Shown here: positions 37,656 to 64,000 of the stretch, piece after piece
Numbering within the stretch: position 1 is the stretch's first letter
Layout of the letters: each line of letters begins with the position of its first letter
Virus record (IMG/VR): IMGVR_UViG_3300013132_005788
Span: 1 to 64,000 of that record
DNA length: 64,000 bases
Reading direction: 5' to 3' (one strand)
From: a virus
Notes under the pieces: generated by a model
Seen by the model: the letters and a program-made list of their open reading frames with translations, nothing else
Told to the model about the DNA's origin: nothing
Databases searched by the model: none
Position numbers and translations under genes: made by a program

Positions 37656-38438
37656 ATGTATATTAGCTGGTTAGATAAAAAATTCTGTAAGAATTGCAAT
37701 TCTGAATTAAAAATTAGGAACAAGAGAGATATTTCCCGTAAAAACTTTTGCTCCAGATCATGTAATGCAATATTCAACGGGAAAAAAAGATTATCGGATC
37801 CAGATTTTAAATTGAAATTCATAGAGGCTTCCAAAAATCCAGAAAGCCGATTGAAGAAAGGCCATAAATTGGAAAAACATCCCTTATGGAAGGGTAGAAA
37901 AAAGATATTCTGCCTATCTTGTGATAATGAATTTGAGGTAAAAATAAATTCAAAAAGGAAATATTGTAGTAAAATATGTTCTTTGAAAAAAATACATTCC
38001 GATGCTATTGGAAGAAGTAGAGTTAATAAGATTAAACATGAATGCGTGATTTGTCATAGGACTTTTGAAAGATCTGAAAATTATAAATCACCCGCTAAAT
38101 ATTGCTCCAGAAAATGTCATTGTATAGGAATAGTGAAATTCTCCAATAAAAAATATACCAGCATTGAAAAAATTGTGGAAAATATTTTAATTGAGTTGAA
38201 CGTAGAATATCATACCCAGTATCCTATATGTAATATATCAGTAGCGGATTTTAGAATAAATAATTTACTAATATTTGCTGATGGAGATTATTGGCATAAT
38301 TTACCAGGTAGAAGGGATAAAGATATATTACAAGCATCCAAACTACAGCAATTGGGGTATATAGTTATTAGATTCGATGGGAGTTTAATAGAAAAAGATT
38401 ATAATAAAGTCAAAGATAAAATAAGAGAAATTTTATGA
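37656..38438 (+). CDS. Vsr-like (EDxHD-type) homing endonuclease with zinc-finger repeats
   Basis: 260 residues. Three Cys-rich units, each CxxC...CSxxC (CKNCNSEL..CSRSC; CLSCDNEF..CSKIC; CVICHRTF..CSRKC), form zinc-finger repeats that probably read DNA. The C-terminal domain has the Vsr/PD-(D/E)XK-like core: SVADFRINNLLIFADGDYWHN then IVIRFDGSLI. Such proteins are free-standing homing endonucleases in phages. The gene is visibly more A/T-rich and Lys/Ile-rich than its neighbours and is flanked upstream by a 78-nt gap, both signs of insertion. Its stop overlaps the next start (ATGA). Confidence 0.8.
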   Translation: MYISWLDKKFCKNCNSELKIRNKRDISRKNFCSRSCNAIFNGKKRLSDPDFKLKFIEASKNPESRLKKGHKLEKHPLWKGRKKIFCLSCDNEFEVKINSKRKYCSKICSLKKIHSDAIGRSRVNKIKHECVICHRTFERSENYKSPAKYCSRKCHCIGIVKFSNKKYTSIEKIVENILIELNVEYHTQYPICNISVADFRINNLLIFADGDYWHNLPGRRDKDILQASKLQQLGYIVIRFDGSLIEKDYNKVKDKIREIL

Positions 38439-39353: not shown

Positions 39354-39746
39354 ATGAAAACAAAAAACCTATTTAGAGACCTAAACACAGAAATCAGAGA
39401 GATGTTTGACCTGGTAGAGCTTTCTGATCTACAGAAAGGAACATCAGACTTCTTCGTAAATGTTTTTAATGAAGTTGCTTCTCGCGAGAAAATAATGGTT
39501 AACGTACCAGGATTTTCCAAAGATGATCTAAAAATTTCTCTTGATGAAAAGGGATATCTTAAAATATCAGGAGAAAAAGAAGTGGAGGGTAAAACCAGAA
39601 AGATCCAAAGATCCTATTACATCCAGCATCTTAATTCATTAGATACCGATAAAATACAAGCGAAGGTAGAAAATGGGCTACTGGTCATCAATCTGGGAAA
39701 AAAGGATGAATCTAAGAAAGGGCCTAAGGAAATTATTATTCAGTAA
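39354..39746 (+). CDS. Hsp20 / alpha-crystallin small heat-shock protein
   Basis: 130 residues with a complete alpha-crystallin domain: IMVNVPGFSKDDLKISLDEKG (strand/loop typical of Hsp20), YLKISGEKEVEG, RSYYIQHLNSLDTDKIQAKVENGLLVINL. The final NGLLVINLGKKDE gives the conserved G-x-L hallmark, though the usual I-x-I tail anchor is only weakly seen as EIIIQ. Hsp20 holds unfolding proteins; small Hsps also occur in T4-like cyanophages. The gene sits between two terminators, so it is a single-gene transcript. Confidence 0.88.
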   Translation: MKTKNLFRDLNTEIREMFDLVELSDLQKGTSDFFVNVFNEVASREKIMVNVPGFSKDDLKISLDEKGYLKISGEKEVEGKTRKIQRSYYIQHLNSLDTDKIQAKVENGLLVINLGKKDESKKGPKEIIIQ

Positions 39747-40034: not shown

Positions 40035-40442
40035 ATGAGGCTCATTCAGGATGAATACAGAGGCGAGCCATGGAAAATTATGGTTTGCTGTATTCTACTT
40101 AACCAAACATCCAATAAACAGGTTCGCCCGTTATTGGATGTTTTGTTTGGTAGGTTTCCTGGACCATCTTCCGTTAAAGAATGTGACCATCTCGAAATAT
40201 CTGAAATAATAAGGACCACCGGATTTCAGAATGTCAAAGCGAGCAGGATCATAAGAATGAGTCAAAAATTCACCTTGGGATTTAAGGATCCTATAGAACT
40301 TCCGGGAATTGGTAAATACGGAGTTGAATCGTGGAAAATATTTGTTGATGATTTTATAGAATTTAATCCATCTGACAGAAGATTAAAAGAATATATAGCT
40401 TATTTAAAGGATGGAAATAAAGATAGGAATAACCCAGACTAA
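40035..40442 (+). CDS. MBD4-like HhH-GPD DNA glycosylase
   Basis: 135 residues, only the catalytic domain. PWKIMVCCILLNQTSNKQVRPLLDVLFGRFP, then IIRTTGFQNVKASRIIRMSQKF, then IELPGIGKYGVESWKIF and NPSDRRLKEYIAYL follow human MBD4's glycosylase domain segment by segment (PWKLLIATIFLNRTSG..., IELHGIGKYGNDSYRIF, HPEDHKLNKYHDWL). The Asp in NPSDRRL occupies the MBD4 catalytic position. MBD4 removes T or U from G:T/G:U mismatches. It has no Fe-S cluster cysteines, unlike Nth. A phage version could protect against deaminated or modified cytosine. Overlaps the next gene by 32 nt. Confidence 0.72.
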   Translation: MRLIQDEYRGEPWKIMVCCILLNQTSNKQVRPLLDVLFGRFPGPSSVKECDHLEISEIIRTTGFQNVKASRIIRMSQKFTLGFKDPIELPGIGKYGVESWKIFVDDFIEFNPSDRRLKEYIAYLKDGNKDRNNPD

Positions 40443-41139: not shown

Positions 41140-42549
41140 ATGATAATAGATATTGAAAACCAAGGTAATTCTCTTAAGATCTCTCATTATAATGATGAGG
41201 GTGATCTAGAGTTTATGAATCTGGACATTCCCAAGTCCCAAAGATTCATCTGGAGGAAAACTTCAGAGAGCGATAAAAGTAAAGATCCCGTTTGGAGATC
41301 GTGGGACGGATTCCCCGTCAAAAAATCGATGGGTGAAAGATTTGATAAGTATCGGATAGTTGAAATTCTGGAGAGCTTCGACAAGAGTATCACTAAGCCG
41401 CTCTGGGAAACACAGGTTCCCAAGAAATACTTTGTCGATATTGAAACAGAGATCACAGATAACCGGGCGGATTCACTTGATACCGCCCAGGCTAAAAACA
41501 AGATCCTCTCGATTGGTATTGCTTCATCTATGGGAAAGATATTAATTCTGGGTATAGATGATATGCCGAATGAAAAGATTCTAAGCATAGAAAACAGAGT
41601 AAAAGAGCATTTTAAGGGATTCAAGGGTGATTGGACTTTTAACTATCGAAAGTTCGAAAGCGAATTCGATATGATCTATACATTTCTAGCCAAGCTCCTT
41701 CATAAGATGCCACTGGTTACAGGATGGAACTGGTTTGGATATGACTGGCCTTATATTCTGGGAAGATGTAAGAGATTGGGAATCGACCCATCGATTGCTT
41801 CTCCCAGCGGAATACTTCTAGGTAAGAACCAAATACCAATGCATGTGCTCATGGTTGACTACTTGGATATCTACAAGAAATGGGATAGGGTCATTAAGAT
41901 CAGAGAGTCAAATTCCCTTGATTATGTTGCTAATGCTGCACTTGGAGTGAAGAAGATCAAATATGATGGAACTCTGAAGGATCTTTATGAATCGGATTTT
42001 GAAACATATATCTTCTATAACGCAGTCGACTGTGTTCTGCTTCACTATATAGATCAGAAGCTGAACACAATGGCCACATTCTTTAAAATAGCTAATGTAA
42101 GTGGAGTTGAGATCAATCGTGCTCTTTCTCCTGTTTGGACGACGGAAGTTCTTATGCTCAGAAAATTCCTGGCTAGAAATCAGGTCATAGTCTACGAAAG
42201 AAAGGATGATGTGGCTGTTAAATTTGAGGGAGCTTACGTGAAACAACCAGAGAAAGGGATGTATGAATGGATAGCATGTTTTGACTTTGCCTCCCTGTAT
42301 CCCAACACGATGATGCAATGGGGAATATCCCCGGAGATCTTCATTGGAAAAAACATTCAGAATCCACCGGAAGGAGCAATCCACACTTCTTCTGGGGCTT
42401 ATTTTTATAGCAAAAATGGAGAAGAACCCGTTCTAAGAGATGTTCTTAAATCCTTATATGCCCAAAGAAAATCTGCTAAAGGAAAGTACATGGATTGTCA
42501 AAGAGAAATCGAAAAAATTGAAAAACTCATAAAACAAAAATCAAATTAA
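41140..42549 (+). CDS. 43: DNA polymerase family B, N-terminal (exonuclease) half; split gp43-like
   Basis: 469 residues where T4 gp43 has about 898. Proofreading motifs are complete: ExoI FVDIETE (Asp100/Glu102), ExoII WNWFGYDWPYI (Asp202), ExoIII YNAVD (Tyr293/Asp297). The palm's motif A is present (FDFASLYPNT, 381-390), then SLYAQRKSAKGKYMDCQRE and a charged helix, where the chain stops. Missing are the fingers motif B, the DTDS motif C and the thumb, so this chain alone cannot polymerise. The stop falls in the fingers region, as in naturally split family-B enzymes. The second half is not in this window. A downstream gene begins 2 nt later. Confidence 0.87.
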   Translation: MIIDIENQGNSLKISHYNDEGDLEFMNLDIPKSQRFIWRKTSESDKSKDPVWRSWDGFPVKKSMGERFDKYRIVEILESFDKSITKPLWETQVPKKYFVDIETEITDNRADSLDTAQAKNKILSIGIASSMGKILILGIDDMPNEKILSIENRVKEHFKGFKGDWTFNYRKFESEFDMIYTFLAKLLHKMPLVTGWNWFGYDWPYILGRCKRLGIDPSIASPSGILLGKNQIPMHVLMVDYLDIYKKWDRVIKIRESNSLDYVANAALGVKKIKYDGTLKDLYESDFETYIFYNAVDCVLLHYIDQKLNTMATFFKIANVSGVEINRALSPVWTTEVLMLRKFLARNQVIVYERKDDVAVKFEGAYVKQPEKGMYEWIACFDFASLYPNTMMQWGISPEIFIGKNIQNPPEGAIHTSSGAYFYSKNGEEPVLRDVLKSLYAQRKSAKGKYMDCQREIEKIEKLIKQKSN

Positions 42550-42550
42550 T

Positions 42551-43054
42551 ATGGCAAACACAGACAACCGCTGCGCAAATCTTGAGATCGAAGATATATG
42601 GTCTACGAAAGTTACCAACGATGGAGAATTCATCGGTCAAGAATCCATCGACACTCTTGGGGACATCCTAAATCTTCAGGCTGAAACTCAGAAGAATGTT
42701 TATGGATATGATTTTGAAAACATGACTCTCAGAGAGATTATGGAATTCTGGCACATGAATTCTCATTCGTTAATAGATGAAATTCACGAAGCTACTGATG
42801 CACTGGGTGGTATAAAGGATGGCAACGGAAATGCTATATGGAAGAAATGGAAGAAGGCTTATTCTACCTATTCTGATAAGAAATTCTCGGATCTCTCCGA
42901 ATCCGATCAGATTGAGTGTAAGTTTGAAATAATAGACATGCTTCATTTCTTTATGAATTATGCAGCAGCTATCGGCATGACATCTCAAGAAATGTACAAC
43001 ATGTATATGAGTAAAAACATGGAGAATAGAGCAAGACAACAAAGGGGATACTAA
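42551..43054 (+). CDS. dut: Dimeric all-alpha dUTPase (MazG-like fold)
   Basis: 167 residues, all-helical, with the metal-binding pattern of dimeric dUTPase/dCTPase: SLIDEIHEATDALGG (E-x-x-E...), then KFEIIDMLHFFMNYAAAIGMT (E-x-x-D), then MYMSKNMENRARQQRGY (K-N-x-x-N-x-x-R). It hydrolyses dUTP to dUMP and so keeps uracil out of DNA. It lies directly between the polymerase half and nrdB, a nucleotide-metabolism group. ATG is 2 nt after the polymerase stop. Confidence 0.85.
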   Translation: MANTDNRCANLEIEDIWSTKVTNDGEFIGQESIDTLGDILNLQAETQKNVYGYDFENMTLREIMEFWHMNSHSLIDEIHEATDALGGIKDGNGNAIWKKWKKAYSTYSDKKFSDLSESDQIECKFEIIDMLHFFMNYAAAIGMTSQEMYNMYMSKNMENRARQQRGY

Positions 43055-48190: not shown

Positions 48191-50941
48191 ATGAAAAGAG
48201 TGCACGTTCCCAATGTCTCCGGACACAGTCTTAATAAGATAAACCAGGATATTAAAAAATCTCTGGACCAACATTTCTCCTTCGTTGATGGATCACCTGC
48301 TGACATTTTGGTTCAGCACTATGTTTCTGGAATCGGTACCTCCAAGAAGTATAATAGAAAAATACTAATACAGCCCATAGACGGAACCCGGATTAACCAG
48401 GGAATGGTTAAAAGTATAAATCAATTTGACCTCATATTAGCTCCTGCTGAAGCATCCAAGAAAATAATGGAGTCTTCCGGCGTGATTAAGCCGATTAGGA
48501 TTATTTCCAACTATTATGACGATGATCTCTTGGATATAAAGAGCAATTTCTTCGATGTCAGATACAGCTCTAAAAAATATACATTCTATTCAGAAACCAC
48601 TGGAATCAAGAGAAAGAATGTTGATAATCTCCTCCGATATTTTTTAGATGAATTCTCAGGAAAGCCAGAAGCCGAAAAAGTCAGACTTGTCCTAAAACTT
48701 TCATCCGGCGATAAAACTAAGATGAGCACTCTGGAAAAAATCAGGAATTCGTATCAGAATGCTCCAGAAGTCGATATTTATAATCAGTGGCTTGATGATG
48801 CTGATCTTAATTCATTGAGAAGGGGAATGGATTGTTATGTTATGCTCTCCTATATGGAGGGATTTTGCATACCTCTGCTTAATGCCGCGGTTTTAAAGAA
48901 GGATATAATATGTCTTAATTCCACGATTAGTGGATATATGGATTTTATTAACAAAGGAAATTCAATCTTGGTTCCTGTTAAGAAAATCCCAATAGATCAA
49001 AAACACGAAAGTCTTTTGATCTATGATAAGACATCAACATGGGAGGAACCCATATATCCTGAATATCAGAGAGCCCTTAGAAAAGCCTATACTGGAGAGT
49101 ATCAATTCGATAAAGTCGACGATTTTTCCGACTTCTCCAAACGATCCGTAATGGAGAAATATAGAGAAGAGATAGAAGGTAGAGACTCGTTGGGCTGCTG
49201 TATATCACAGGAATCCAGTAGAGATGCTTACTCTGCTGTGTGTAGGGATCTGGAAAGAATAGGTGTGGACGGATGCGATTTTTTTGAGTATTCCAAAATA
49301 ATTAGATCTCATATAAAAAGGAGCGGAATTCCAAGAAATTCTTTCGTCAATAATATTATACAAACTCATATTGATGTTTTAAAAACAAGGGAATCGTCCA
49401 AACTGGAATATTCTCTGATCTGCGATGATGATGTGATAGTGATCAGGGATGACGAGAAAATTCTTGACATTGTGAGAAAAGCTCCTGAGGATTGGGACAT
49501 TATATTTCTAGGAGGTATGAATCATTATCATCCTCCTTTTATTATCGATGATGATTTTTACAGGTGCAGATTTTCATTTAATCCACATTGTTATCTGATT
49601 AAGACATCCTTTATTCCAGTTGTTTTGTCGGAGCTAGAAAAAAGAGAAGCTGAATGTGATGTGATATTTGCCAAAATGCAAGAATCTGGAATTGGAAACT
49701 GGTATGGATTAAAAAGAGATATGATCATTCCATCCGGCAGGAATGGAACCAAATATATTAGTCTCTTTCCGCCCGCATATGCACAGGTTAAAAATTTGGA
49801 AAGAAAAAGAACCGGGGATTTAAGGATCTCCAGAATATCTTCAGATTCCTCTATAAAAGGAATAAAATATGTTGCGGTCAGAGGAAGTTCCGGATATGCA
49901 AATTGTGCAAAGGATTATATTATTGGAATAAGCGATTCCGGGATTCCAGTTACACCGCATCTTCTTAAGCATAATGATTCTTCCTACCTTACTGGCGATA
50001 AAAATTCCAGAGTTAACTCACTAAAAGACGACGGAATGGATTACGACGCCTTAATTATTCATCTTTTGCCGGATCTCTGGAAGAACGAGGTGGATACTCA
50101 TGGCGCAAATGTTCGCGATAAGATAGGATATTTTGCATGGGAAGCGGATAAAATTCCTGATGAGTGGTCCGAAGGATTTGATGTGGTTGATAAAATAGCT
50201 GTTCCGTGTGAATGGAACAGAAAGGTACTAATAGATTCAGGAGTCACAAAACCTATTTGTGTTATACCCCATATTTACGATGAAATCGTTCCCAAATCAT
50301 TTGGTATACCAGGATACAATGGCGAATTTGTGTTTTATACCATAGGACAATTTCTGGAAAGAAAGGGCATAGAGGACTCGGTTCGTTCGTATTTGGGAGC
50401 ATTCACATCAGAGGATAATGTTTGTCTTATAGTTAAAACGGAAGGTAGGGAATATAATAAATCAGATAGAGAAATAGTGAGAAAAGAGATAGAAAAAATC
50501 ATAAGTGAATTTCCAAATCCCGCCAAAGTTATTACTATCGTGGATGAAATTTCAGACGGTAACATTGCATATCTGCACTCAATTGGGGATTGTTTTATTT
50601 CCCTTTTTAAAGCGGAAGGATGGGGATTATCTCTGTTTGATGCCACGATAAAAGGAACACCGGTCATTTGTACTGGATATGGTGGATCGCTTGATTTCAC
50701 CTGTGGCCCTTATGTTAATTATGAGATTGGTCCAATAACAGATCACTATAAGTGGTTCAACGAATCACAGAAATGGGCTTATCCGGACATTTCCCGTGGA
50801 TCTCTTATCATGAGAGATGTCTACGAAAATATAGACTCATATAAAAAAATAGCTGAAGATCACTCTGCGATAGTTAAAGAGAAATTTTCCACTAAAAAAA
50901 TCATAGAAAAATTTATAGGGTTCATAAAAGAAAAACCATAA
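48191..50941 (+). CDS. Three-domain glycosyltransferase (GT4 - GT25-like - GT4)
   Basis: 916 residues. Part 1 (~1-320) is a GT-B glycosyltransferase with the family-4 signature near EGFCIPLLNAA (~222). Part 2 (~333-540) resembles a GT25-type LPS glycosyltransferase: DISQ-like start (CCISQESSRDAY), then LICDDDVIVI (~410) with a DxD-like metal motif, WDIIFLGG, and NPHCYLIKTSF. Part 3 (~558-916) is a second GT-B unit with KAEGWGLSLFDATIKGTPVICT (~806 on) as sugar-nucleotide site. One polypeptide could build a short glycan on a virion protein, phage DNA or host surface. Acceptor and sugars cannot be told. Confidence 0.75.
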   Translation: MKRVHVPNVSGHSLNKINQDIKKSLDQHFSFVDGSPADILVQHYVSGIGTSKKYNRKILIQPIDGTRINQGMVKSINQFDLILAPAEASKKIMESSGVIKPIRIISNYYDDDLLDIKSNFFDVRYSSKKYTFYSETTGIKRKNVDNLLRYFLDEFSGKPEAEKVRLVLKLSSGDKTKMSTLEKIRNSYQNAPEVDIYNQWLDDADLNSLRRGMDCYVMLSYMEGFCIPLLNAAVLKKDIICLNSTISGYMDFINKGNSILVPVKKIPIDQKHESLLIYDKTSTWEEPIYPEYQRALRKAYTGEYQFDKVDDFSDFSKRSVMEKYREEIEGRDSLGCCISQESSRDAYSAVCRDLERIGVDGCDFFEYSKIIRSHIKRSGIPRNSFVNNIIQTHIDVLKTRESSKLEYSLICDDDVIVIRDDEKILDIVRKAPEDWDIIFLGGMNHYHPPFIIDDDFYRCRFSFNPHCYLIKTSFIPVVLSELEKREAECDVIFAKMQESGIGNWYGLKRDMIIPSGRNGTKYISLFPPAYAQVKNLERKRTGDLRISRISSDSSIKGIKYVAVRGSSGYANCAKDYIIGISDSGIPVTPHLLKHNDSSYLTGDKNSRVNSLKDDGMDYDALIIHLLPDLWKNEVDTHGANVRDKIGYFAWEADKIPDEWSEGFDVVDKIAVPCEWNRKVLIDSGVTKPICVIPHIYDEIVPKSFGIPGYNGEFVFYTIGQFLERKGIEDSVRSYLGAFTSEDNVCLIVKTEGREYNKSDREIVRKEIEKIISEFPNPAKVITIVDEISDGNIAYLHSIGDCFISLFKAEGWGLSLFDATIKGTPVICTGYGGSLDFTCGPYVNYEIGPITDHYKWFNESQKWAYPDISRGSLIMRDVYENIDSYKKIAEDHSAIVKEKFSTKKIIEKFIGFIKEKP

Positions 50942-58332: not shown

Positions 58333-59265
58333 ATGGATCACAGTAAAAATAATTTTGGATATTGCTGTCTGTGTCTTTCCCTTGAGAATCAGGGGATTAC
58401 AACTAACAGAGGAATGGTTAAAAAAACTTTTCTGGAAAAAGGAATCTCATATGCTGCTGAGCTTGCTCTTAAAAATACTGAGGACCTGATAAAGATTATA
58501 GAATGGAACATTTCACAGGGAATTAAAATGTATAGAATGAGCTCTGATATGTTCCCTTGGTGTTCTGAATATGAAATATCAGACCTTCCCCGTTTTGATT
58601 TGATTGCAGGAAATCTTAAAAAAGCCGGGGATCTAGCAATGGGTTCTAATTTAAGACTTAGCTTCCATCCATCACCATATTGCGTTATTGCTTCACAGAA
58701 CCCAGATGTGGTGACTAAATCAATTAAGGAGCTTCGTCAGCACGGAGAGATTATGAATTTTATGGGTCTACCACAGAACCATTTTTATCCCATAAATATC
58801 CACGTTAACACTTCTAAGCCTTCCAAGGAGGAATCAGCTTCTAGATTTTGCAGGGAATTTCAGGGGCTTCCTGAATTTGTCAAAAGTAGACTCGTTATAG
58901 AGAATGACGATAAAAAATCACTTTTTACTCCTAATGAGCTTTACTCCCTTCTGCATGAAAATATAGGAATCCCTATAACATTTGATTTCCTTCACTATAA
59001 ATGTAATCCTGATGTGGATTCTACTGAAGAGGATTCTTTAAGAAAATGCCTTTCGACCTGGCCGGATGGTATTGTTCCTCTGACTCACTACTCCGATTCT
59101 AAAAAGATCTATGAGGATGCAAGCGCCAAGGAATTATCTCATACTGATTGGATATACAATAAGATAGAGACGTATGGCTTGGAGTTTTCTATCGAGCTCG
59201 AAGTCAAGATGAAGGATCTGGCACTATTAAAATACCTCCAGGATTTCCATTCCGATTCCCTGTAA
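58333..59265 (+). CDS. uvsE: UV damage endonuclease (UvdE/UvsE)
   Basis: 310 residues, TIM-barrel AP-endonuclease-like family. Signature segments are visible: FGYCCLCLSL at the start, IKMYRMSSDMFPW, LRLSFHPSPYCVI, INIHVNTSKPSKEES, RLVIENDD and ITFDFLHYKCNPD, which supply the metal-binding His, Glu and Asp residues. The enzyme nicks DNA 5' of UV photoproducts. T4 uses DenV instead. Together with the MBD4-like glycosylase it suggests that the phage meets sunlight or DNA-damage stress. Confidence 0.88.
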   Translation: MDHSKNNFGYCCLCLSLENQGITTNRGMVKKTFLEKGISYAAELALKNTEDLIKIIEWNISQGIKMYRMSSDMFPWCSEYEISDLPRFDLIAGNLKKAGDLAMGSNLRLSFHPSPYCVIASQNPDVVTKSIKELRQHGEIMNFMGLPQNHFYPINIHVNTSKPSKEESASRFCREFQGLPEFVKSRLVIENDDKKSLFTPNELYSLLHENIGIPITFDFLHYKCNPDVDSTEEDSLRKCLSTWPDGIVPLTHYSDSKKIYEDASAKELSHTDWIYNKIETYGLEFSIELEVKMKDLALLKYLQDFHSDSL

Positions 59266-59723: not shown

Positions 59724-59850
59724 AGGTGTTGCTGCAATTATCTCTATGGGATTATTCTTGGCTGCAGTGTCTCTCACTTTCTTTTTTCTTTGGATTGATA
59801 ATTTCTTAGGTATGGTAGTTAATTACATATCAGGAAGAAGGAGAAGATGA
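59710..59850 (+). CDS. 46-aa single-span membrane protein
   Basis: A short gene overlapping both neighbours (14 nt before, 4 nt ATGA with dnaJ). The product [20 protein letters not shown] continues with [10 protein letters not shown], one clear hydrophobic helix, and ends in Arg-rich SGRRRR. Tight overlaps argue that it is translated. A small holin-like or DnaJ-associated membrane peptide is possible; nothing decides it. Confidence 0.5.
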
Positions 59851-60869
59851 AGAATTATTACGAAATATTAGGTGTGCAGAAAAATGCCACGGATGATGAA
59901 TTAAAAAAGGCCTATCGAAAATTAGCTTTGCAATATCATCCTGATAAGAACCCCGGAACCGAAGATAAATTCAAGGAGGTAGCGGAGGCTTATGAGACTC
60001 TCTCCAATCCAGAAAAGAGGAAAAAATATGACAATCCTCTGCGAGGATTTAGCGGTGGATTTGAAGGATTTGATTCGGCATATTCTGATTTATTTAATCA
60101 GTGGAACTCGAGAAACTCCAAAATAAGAAGCAAGGGTCAGAGCCTGAGCATTTACATTCAATTAGGTATAGACGATTCAATCACCGGGATCTCAAAAAAA
60201 ATCAGGCTAAAGAGAAAAGTCAGATGTAAACCTTGTGGCGGAAACGGATCCCTAAATGGATCATCATTTCAGTCCTGCGGAGAGTGTAATGGTAGGGGAA
60301 TGGTGGATGCCTACAGTAATAGGGGATTTGTTCAGATGATACAGACCGTGGCATGTCCCAAATGCCAGGGAAAGGGAAAGGTTATACTGGAGGGATGCGA
60401 TACATGTCTCTCCTCTGGACTTGCCGACATGGAAGATGTGATAGAAGTTAATATTCCTGCTGGAGCAGTTGAGGGAATGCAGTTTCAGGTGCACGGTAAG
60501 GGAAATGAAGATCCTATGGGTGGAGATAATGGGGATTTAATAGTGAACGTGAGGGAACTAAAAGATGCTAGATTTCAAAGGATAGGAAATAATATACAGA
60601 CGTCTAAGATAATATCTTTTATTGACGCTTGTGTGGGAACAACATTGGATGTGGAGCTTCCGCTTAATGAGAAAGCAACGATATCGGTGGATCCTGGAAC
60701 AAAATCAGGCACTATTCTCAAATTCACGGGCAAAGGAATTCCTCATTTAGGTATTGGAATAAAAGGAGATTTTTTGGTTGAGGTTAAAATACATGTTCCT
60801 GATAACCTCTCCGATGGGCAAAAAGAAATACTAGAAAAACTTAAACAAATTGATTTTATTTTACCATGA
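59847..60869 (+). CDS. dnaJ: DnaJ (Hsp40) co-chaperone
   Basis: 340 residues. J domain at 1-65 with HPD at 31-33 ([12 protein letters not shown]). A short Gly/Phe segment follows. The zinc domain has [24 protein letters not shown] and a degenerate fourth unit CDTCLSSG. Two C-terminal beta domains follow ([47 protein letters not shown]). It would direct host DnaK to phage proteins during assembly or replication. It overlaps the DUF1360 gene by 4 nt. Confidence 0.92.
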
Positions 60870-63744: not shown

Positions 63745-64000
63745 ATGAGCAAAAAAGGGCAAACTTGGAAATTTAGAATAGTTAACACGTCTAATTTCAT
63801 TTCATTCCTAAGAAAGGTTAAACTTGTAGATAAAAGCGTTCCTCTCGAACTTGACGGAGACGATCTTTTTGGAAAAGTCAGAACAGTCGACAAATCTGTT
63901 GTGAAATTTGTTTCTATCAAAATCAAGGATGTTCTCGAGGGGGAATTACCTGCACAGAGAATAAAAATAGGAATCCAGGATATAGGGAAATTAATCGAGG
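63745..64000 (+). CDS. Protein start, possibly sliding-clamp-like (3' partial)
   Basis: The frame opens at ATG 63745 after an AAAAAA leader and runs off the window. The 85 visible residues are beta-rich (FRIVNTSNFISFLRKVKLVD, PLELDGDDLFGKVRTVD, VSIKIKDVLEG) and end IKIGIQDIGKLIE. The strand order vaguely recalls the first domain of a gp45-type clamp, which would fit the replication context, but no diagnostic residue is visible. Coding is likely; the name is a guess. Confidence 0.4.
   Translation, partial: MSKKGQTWKFRIVNTSNFISFLRKVKLVDKSVPLELDGDDLFGKVRTVDKSVVKFVSIKIKDVLEGELPAQRIKIGIQDIGKLIE

What the first reader, a model, noticed from the sequence alone, without database searches (positions are those of the whole stretch)
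41140..42549. Polymerase gene ends in the fingers region with no second half nearby
All three exonuclease motifs and palm motif A are intact, then a stop after residue 469. Motif B, DTDS motif C and the thumb are not encoded in the 21 kb downstream or anywhere else in the window. The cut point matches where family-B polymerases have been split in some archaea and in some Aeromonas T4-like phages, but there the halves are close. Here either the C-terminal half is distant, or another polymerase does the synthesis.
Basis: partly seen in the sequence, partly recalled or inferred. Interest (0 to 1): 0.76.

Follow-up and report, generated by a model that had tools for sequence, protein, structure and literature searches.

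The report
Phage DNA polymerase in two genes
This large phage makes its DNA-copying enzyme as two separate proteins from genes 22 kb apart (the second gene starts just past the end of the window), and every close relative examined, up to the giant Lak phages, keeps the same break, so the two halves very probably assemble into one working enzyme.

Summary
The cause is the window edge. In the 69,328-base record the C-terminal half (388 aa: motif B KLTLNSIYG, motif C YIDTDS, thumb, conserved C-terminal LF) lies at 64540-65706, same strand, 22 kb downstream, directly after a sliding-clamp-like gene.

Against RB69 gp43 the halves cover about 103-504 and 529-812. The gap is the fingers tip, a stretch reported as disordered in some crystals.

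The break is not an error. All 124 distinct N-half relatives examined stop near the same place; 42 records hold both halves 11-24 kb apart, 27 deeper relatives 1-7 kb apart, and Lak-A2 and four huge-phage records 100-281 kb apart on opposite strands. Both halves evolve under strong constraint and in step (mirror r 0.97). No PolA or PolIII-alpha domain was found in 13 records.

Most likely the two chains associate without splicing, as gp43A/gp43B of Aeromonas phage 25 do. Splits at the fingers tip are known. What seems undescribed is one that is old, lineage-wide and widely separated.

The parts
41140..42549 (+). N-terminal half of family-B DNA polymerase (469 aa): N-terminal domain, 3'-5' exonuclease, palm part 1 with motif A, first fingers helix
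   Evidence: ORF; PF03104 and PF00136 16-147; phrog_2062 over 1-467; profile matches RB69 gp43 103-504, E about 1e-60; AlphaFold2 pLDDT 87, best Foldseek matches RB69 gp43
41437..41445 (+). ExoI motif DIE (residues 100-102)
   Evidence: invariant in alignment A2
42016..42030 (+). ExoIII motif YNAVD (residues 293-297)
   Evidence: Y293 and D297 invariant
42283..42303 (+). Motif A DFASLYP (residues 382-388), first catalytic aspartate of the polymerase site
   Evidence: D382, L386, Y387, P388 invariant; counterpart of RB69 D411 (PMC3792054)
42430..42543 (+). First fingers helix at the C-terminus of the N-half (residues 431-468)
   Evidence: AlphaFold2 helix H431-468; all N-half relatives end within or just after it
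63745..64000 (+). Start of the sliding-clamp-like gene (255 aa, record 63745-64512) that runs past the window end. It is followed, OUTSIDE the window at record 64540-65706 (+), by the C-terminal half of the polymerase (388 aa: second fingers helix with motif B, motif C YIDTDS, thumb, C-terminal LF)
   Evidence: ORFs. Clamp: profile of 27 relatives matches only sliding clamps in the PDB, best E 0.00098; next to the C-half in most relatives. C-half: PF00136 150-237; phrog_1918 over 3-374; profile matches RB69 gp43 529-812, E about 1e-28

Best explanation
The gene is one half of a two-part T4-type replicative DNA polymerase. The N-half (41140-42549) carries the exonuclease, the first part of the palm with catalytic motif A, and the first fingers helix. 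The C-half (record 64540-65706) carries the second fingers helix with motif B, the rest of the palm with motif C (DTDS), the thumb and a conserved C-terminal LF that may bind the clamp. The break removes only the tip of the fingers hairpin. The two proteins most likely bind each other without any splicing: the two fingers helices pair and the palm sheet closes, bringing the motif-A aspartate and the two motif-C aspartates together. Shown here: both intact genes, their homology, the break position, its conservation, co-inheritance and constraint. Inferred: physical assembly, activity and clamp binding. The split is probably old in this phage lineage; the halves are close together in deeper relatives and far apart in this phage's clade and in the giant phages.
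For: C-half found in the same record. The halves tile RB69 gp43: 103-504 and 529-812; RB69 residues 504-530/534 were disordered in reported crystals (PMC3792054). 124 distinct N-half ORFs of under 560 aa at 26.5% identity or more, none running on into a C-half; the only ORFs carrying both halves are distant T4-like ones. Both halves in 42 IMG/VR records, 11.1-23.8 kb apart, all same strand and order; 27 further records 1.0-6.8 kb apart. Published phages PAU, pT24, MA9V-1, Lak-A2 and huge-phage records LR756500/501/502/504 and LR745206 also encode it in pieces. N and C distance matrices correlate at r 0.97 over 59 records, best of 2000 permutations 0.19; dN/dS about 0.01-0.04 in both halves where dS could be computed. 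No PolA or PolIII-alpha in 13 records. No intein residues at the break, no Rfam match of note at either end. AlphaFold2 of each half alone gives low confidence just where the palm needs the partner (N: 357-368 and 377-384, at motif A; C: 34-63 and 167-211). Precedent: phage 25 43A/43B co-purify and have polymerase activity (Petrov 2010, reported in PMC2988022).
Against: No binding, activity or expression data. The complex was not modelled (one chain per job). The record is a 69 kb fragment, so another polymerase elsewhere in this phage cannot be excluded directly. Low pLDDT in the palm may partly reflect a shallow alignment. Bootstrap for one single split is moderate (74 concatenated, 56 N, 45 C), so the PAU-type split could be separate.
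Confidence: 0.9

Rival explanations
1. The halves are joined covalently, by intein protein splicing or by trans-splicing of the two transcripts.
For: Relatives carry inteins in the C-half at DTD|S, contiguous or fractured; N. equitans PolB is split, non-adjacent and possibly intein-spliced (PMC4104785).
Against: At the fingers break the N-half ends in a plain helix (KLIKQKSN) and the C-half starts with a plain helix; no intein blocks. No group I intron or other relevant Rfam match around either end.
Confidence: 0.04
2. The N-half is a decayed or repurposed fragment (for example a stand-alone exonuclease) and another polymerase replicates the genome.
For: None beyond the stop codon seen inside the window.
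Against: C-half present and intact; catalytic residues of exonuclease, motif A, B and C conserved in both halves; strong purifying selection and co-inheritance; no PolA or PolIII-alpha in 13 records.
Confidence: 0.02
3. The stop at 42547 is a sequencing or assembly error.
For: Single metagenomic contig.
Against: Same break in 124 distinct relatives from many assemblies, and a separate C-half gene with its own start in at least 69 records.
Confidence: 0.005
4. The split arose several times within this group, rather than once in a common ancestor (a rival to the single-origin part of the explanation only).
For: At least two other splits at the same site exist (44RR/25; cyanophage ACG-2014f, whose nearest sampled relative S-CAM1 is unsplit); monophyly support only 45-74.
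Against: Split members group together in all three trees with the unsplit outgroups outside; the clamp-like gene precedes the C-half in most of them.
Confidence: 0.2

Closest known systems
gp43A/gp43B of Aeromonas phages 44RR2.8t and 25
   Same: T4-type PolB broken in the fingers tip into exonuclease/palm-A and palm-B/thumb proteins; reported to co-purify and be active for phage 25 (PMC2988022)
   Different: Halves are neighbours (untranslated gap in 44RR, a homing endonuclease gene between in 25) in an otherwise T4-like gene order; separate branch in the trees; here the halves are 22 kb apart and the clamp-like gene sits before the C-half
Split gp43 of cyanophage ACG-2014f
   Same: Same kind of break, two ORFs annotated gp43
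   Different: Two small ORFs between the halves; nested with unsplit S-CAM1, so an independent event
Polymerase genes of Lak phage, huge phages LR75650x, PAU, pT24, MA9V-1 (and probably the freshwater 'moraphages')
   Same: Same break, same clade. PHROGs holds the halves as separate families 2062 and 1918; the moraphage paper lists two 'DNA-directed DNA polymerase' VOGs in its shared set and does not use the word split (PMC12619734)
   Different: Distance, order and strand vary; several carry an intein at DTD|S in the C-half. Moraphage sequences themselves were not compared here
Nanoarchaeum equitans split PolB
   Same: PolB halves encoded by non-adjacent genes (PMC4104785)
   Different: There intein parts are attached to the two fragments; here there is no intein at the break
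Rhodothermus phage RM378 polymerase
   Same: Exonuclease and polymerase parts about 57 kb apart
   Different: Broken between exonuclease and palm; its polymerase ORF keeps PF00136 from position 41, which should include motif A

Membership tests
T4 gp43-type family-B DNA polymerase | Three exonuclease motifs and motif A | tested here: met
   N-half, invariant in relatives
T4 gp43-type family-B DNA polymerase | Motif B (KxxxNSxYG) and motif C (DTDS) | tested here: met
   In the C-half at record 64540-65706
T4 gp43-type family-B DNA polymerase | One continuous polypeptide | tested here: not met
   Two genes 22 kb apart
T4 gp43-type family-B DNA polymerase | Polymerase and 3'-5' exonuclease activity | not testable with these tools
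   needs purified proteins
Aeromonas-type split gp43 (43A/43B) | Break at the fingers tip | tested here: met
   RB69 505-528 is the uncovered stretch; compare 44RR
Aeromonas-type split gp43 (43A/43B) | Halves are neighbours | tested here: not met
   21,990 bases between them
Aeromonas-type split gp43 (43A/43B) | Common ancestry of the split | tested here: not met
   44RR branches outside unsplit cyanophage sequences in the N and concatenated trees, support 100
Split-intein PolB (N. equitans, fractured genes) | Intein fragments at the break | tested here: not met
   No intein blocks at the N-half end or C-half start
RM378-type two-gene polymerase | Break between exonuclease and palm | tested here: not met
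   Break here lies after motif A
Sliding clamp (PCNA/gp45 superfamily), for the gene before the C-half | Sequence profile match to known clamps | tested here: inconclusive
   Only clamps matched, best E 0.00098, over about 80 residues; no Pfam or PHROGs match

The most novel reading that the evidence does not exclude
A whole lineage of large phages, probably infecting Bacteroidota, fixed a two-chain replicative polymerase once, never rejoined it, and then let the halves drift into different parts of the genome (one by dNTP synthesis genes, one by the clamp), so that assembly of the enzyme could depend on co-expression of two separate modules and serve as a control point for replication.
Probability: 0.25. 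Interest if true: 0.65.

Novelty: new variant of a known kind. Interest (0 to 1): 0.52.

Why it matters
A replicative polymerase active site is nearly always built by a single chain. Here the three catalytic aspartates are divided between two proteins encoded tens to hundreds of kilobases apart, in a widespread group that includes the largest known phages. That gives natural, diverged partner pairs for studying how a polymerase can be cut at the fingers tip and still work, explains why annotation reports two 'DNA polymerases' in these genomes, and warns that marker-gene surveys using PolB may count halves separately or lose one of them.

Tried and rejected
Sequencing error: rejected by conservation. 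A second polymerase: PF00476 and PF07733 gave no match in 13 records, while the positive control genomes did ring. A 5'-3' exonuclease domain (PF02739) was found in Lak-A2, pT24 and weakly in PAU, not in the window's clade. Introns or trans-splicing: Rfam search of both ends gave only one sub-threshold, unrelated match. A consensus DNA pattern search in the window was uninformative. The clamp identity failed in Pfam and PHROGs and rests on a weak profile match. The C-half model is poor in the palm (pLDDT below 50 at 34-63 and 167-211) and its superposition on RB69 has a high rmsd, so it was used only to locate the fold. No paper was found that describes the split in PAU-, Lak- or moraphage-type phages, but the library holds open-access papers only and the searches were by exact terms.

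Full report
Observation. The ORF at 41140-42549 encodes 469 aa and ends at a clean TAA; the next ATG is at 42551. Its exonuclease motifs and motif A are intact and nearly invariant in relatives. Nothing else in the window matches the rest of the polymerase. The window, however, is bases 1-64000 of a 69,328-base virus record, and the rest of the record holds the missing part: PF00136 positions 150-237 at 64618-64899, inside a 388-aa ORF at 64540-65706 with KLTLNSIYG and YIDTDS. The halves are on the same strand, 21,990 bases apart.

Anatomy. A profile of the N-half and its relatives matches RB69 gp43 at 103-504 and that of the C-half at 529-812. Residues 504-530 or 504-534 of RB69 gp43 were disordered in reported crystal structures (PMC3792054), so the break falls in a flexible tip. 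The same paper names RB69 D411, D621 and D623 as the catalytic triad. D411 corresponds to motif A in the N-half, and the other two to DTDS in the C-half. AlphaFold2 predicts the N-half well (pLDDT 87) except at 357-384, which reaches motif A, and the C-half less well (74), with the palm segments 34-63 and 167-211 below 50 (the C-half model is of the 73%-identical L003 relative). Foldseek's best matches are RB69 gp43 for both. I read the low palm confidence as a sign that each half needs the other, but a shallow alignment is an alternative.

Conservation of the break. Scans of IMG/VR brought in about 180 loci with the N-half. Of 124 distinct sequences after filtering, every one is a short ORF; those inspected all end in or just after the first fingers helix, and the only ORFs carrying both halves are distant T4-like ones. 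42 records hold both halves at 11.1-23.8 kb (median 17.9), same strand and order. 27 deeper relatives have them 1.0-6.8 kb apart; in L248 the only sizeable ORF between them is the clamp-like one. PAU, MA9V-1 and pT24 have 2.4, 2.2 and 1.2 kb between them. Huge-phage records LR756504, LR756502, LR745206 and LR756501 and Lak-A2 have them 281, 132, 101, 118 and 221 kb apart on opposite strands (the LR756501 figure assumes a circular genome). In G038 the C-half lies about 19 kb upstream of the N-half.

Co-inheritance and constraint. Distances among N-halves and among C-halves correlate at 0.97 over 59 records, far above permutations. This shows shared history and is not by itself proof of binding. 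dN/dS is about 0.01-0.04 for both halves in the pairs where dS could be computed; dS is near or beyond saturation, so these are rough.

Neighbourhood. The C-half is preceded by a 255-aa gene in most relatives, usually within 5-30 bases. A profile of 27 such proteins matches only sliding clamps among PDB sequences, weakly (E 0.00098). The N-half is followed by a weak dUTPase_2 match and a ribonucleotide reductase small chain.

Evolution. Trees of the N-half, the C-half and both joined put the split large-phage sequences in one clade with unsplit T4, S-CAM1 and L206 outside; support is 56, 45 and 74. The Aeromonas split and the cyanophage ACG-2014f split are separate branches, so the fingers tip has been cut at least three times. 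The trend from close to distant halves is a pattern across records; its direction is inferred.

Another polymerase. Neither PolA nor PolIII-alpha was found in 13 records, including Lak-A2, PAU, pT24 and MA9V-1. A published analysis described a split minimal PolIII-alpha in jumbo-phage group 2.2 (PMC7824862); PF07733 would not necessarily detect it, so it remains possible as an accessory enzyme.

What is known. Splits at this site are known from Aeromonas phages 44RR and 25, with co-purification and activity reported for phage 25 (PMC2988022). Archaeal split PolB genes are known, including non-adjacent intein-bearing halves in N. equitans (PMC4104785). PHROGs already holds the two halves as separate families, and the moraphage study lists two polymerase VOGs in its shared set without remarking on a split (PMC12619734). 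I found no description of the old, separated split itself. I therefore rate it a new variant of a known kind.

Noticed in passing
L093 31721-35121 (LR756500); L096 4914-7065 (Lak-A2); L198, L200, L272 1080-2885: The C-half of several relatives carries a serine-type intein exactly at motif C (DTD|S): contiguous in L198, L200 and G038, fractured into two genes with separate ORF(s) between in LR756500 and Lak-A2, so the Lak polymerase is spread over three genes. The window phage has none.
   Followed up: partly
L270 591-3607 (cyanophage ACG-2014f, KJ019059): An independent split of gp43 at the fingers tip, with two small ORFs between the halves; nearest sampled relative S-CAM1 is unsplit.
   Followed up: partly
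window 28449, 34156, 35667, 35959, 37365, 54873, 61185: Seven of 70 plus-strand ORFs start with a similar short N-terminus (M-x(n)-F/Y-xx-F/Y-x-E, e.g. MKNLMSFDLFLIES, MKNLKNFYQFVIEQ), against a 2.4% background. It recalls, from memory, the capsid-targeting peptide of T4 internal proteins.
   Followed up: partly
window 37656-38438: 260-aa protein with zinc-finger-like repeats and a DUF559/MTES_1575-type nuclease domain, possibly a homing endonuclease.
   Followed up: no
window 40035-40442: Short HhH-GPD base-excision protein (135 aa), shorter than usual members.
   Followed up: no
window 48191-50941: 916-aa protein with glycosyltransferase-1 type domains at both ends and an unmatched middle.
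   Followed up: no
window 58333-59265, 59847-60869, 39354-39746: UvdE-type UV endonuclease, full DnaJ and Hsp20 genes on the phage record; heat-shock genes are also reported for moraphages (PMC12619734).
   Followed up: no
L272 1080-2885 (G038): In one relative the C-half lies about 19 kb upstream of the N-half and follows a thymidylate-synthase-like gene (ThyX type, judged by eye), not the clamp-like gene.
   Followed up: partly
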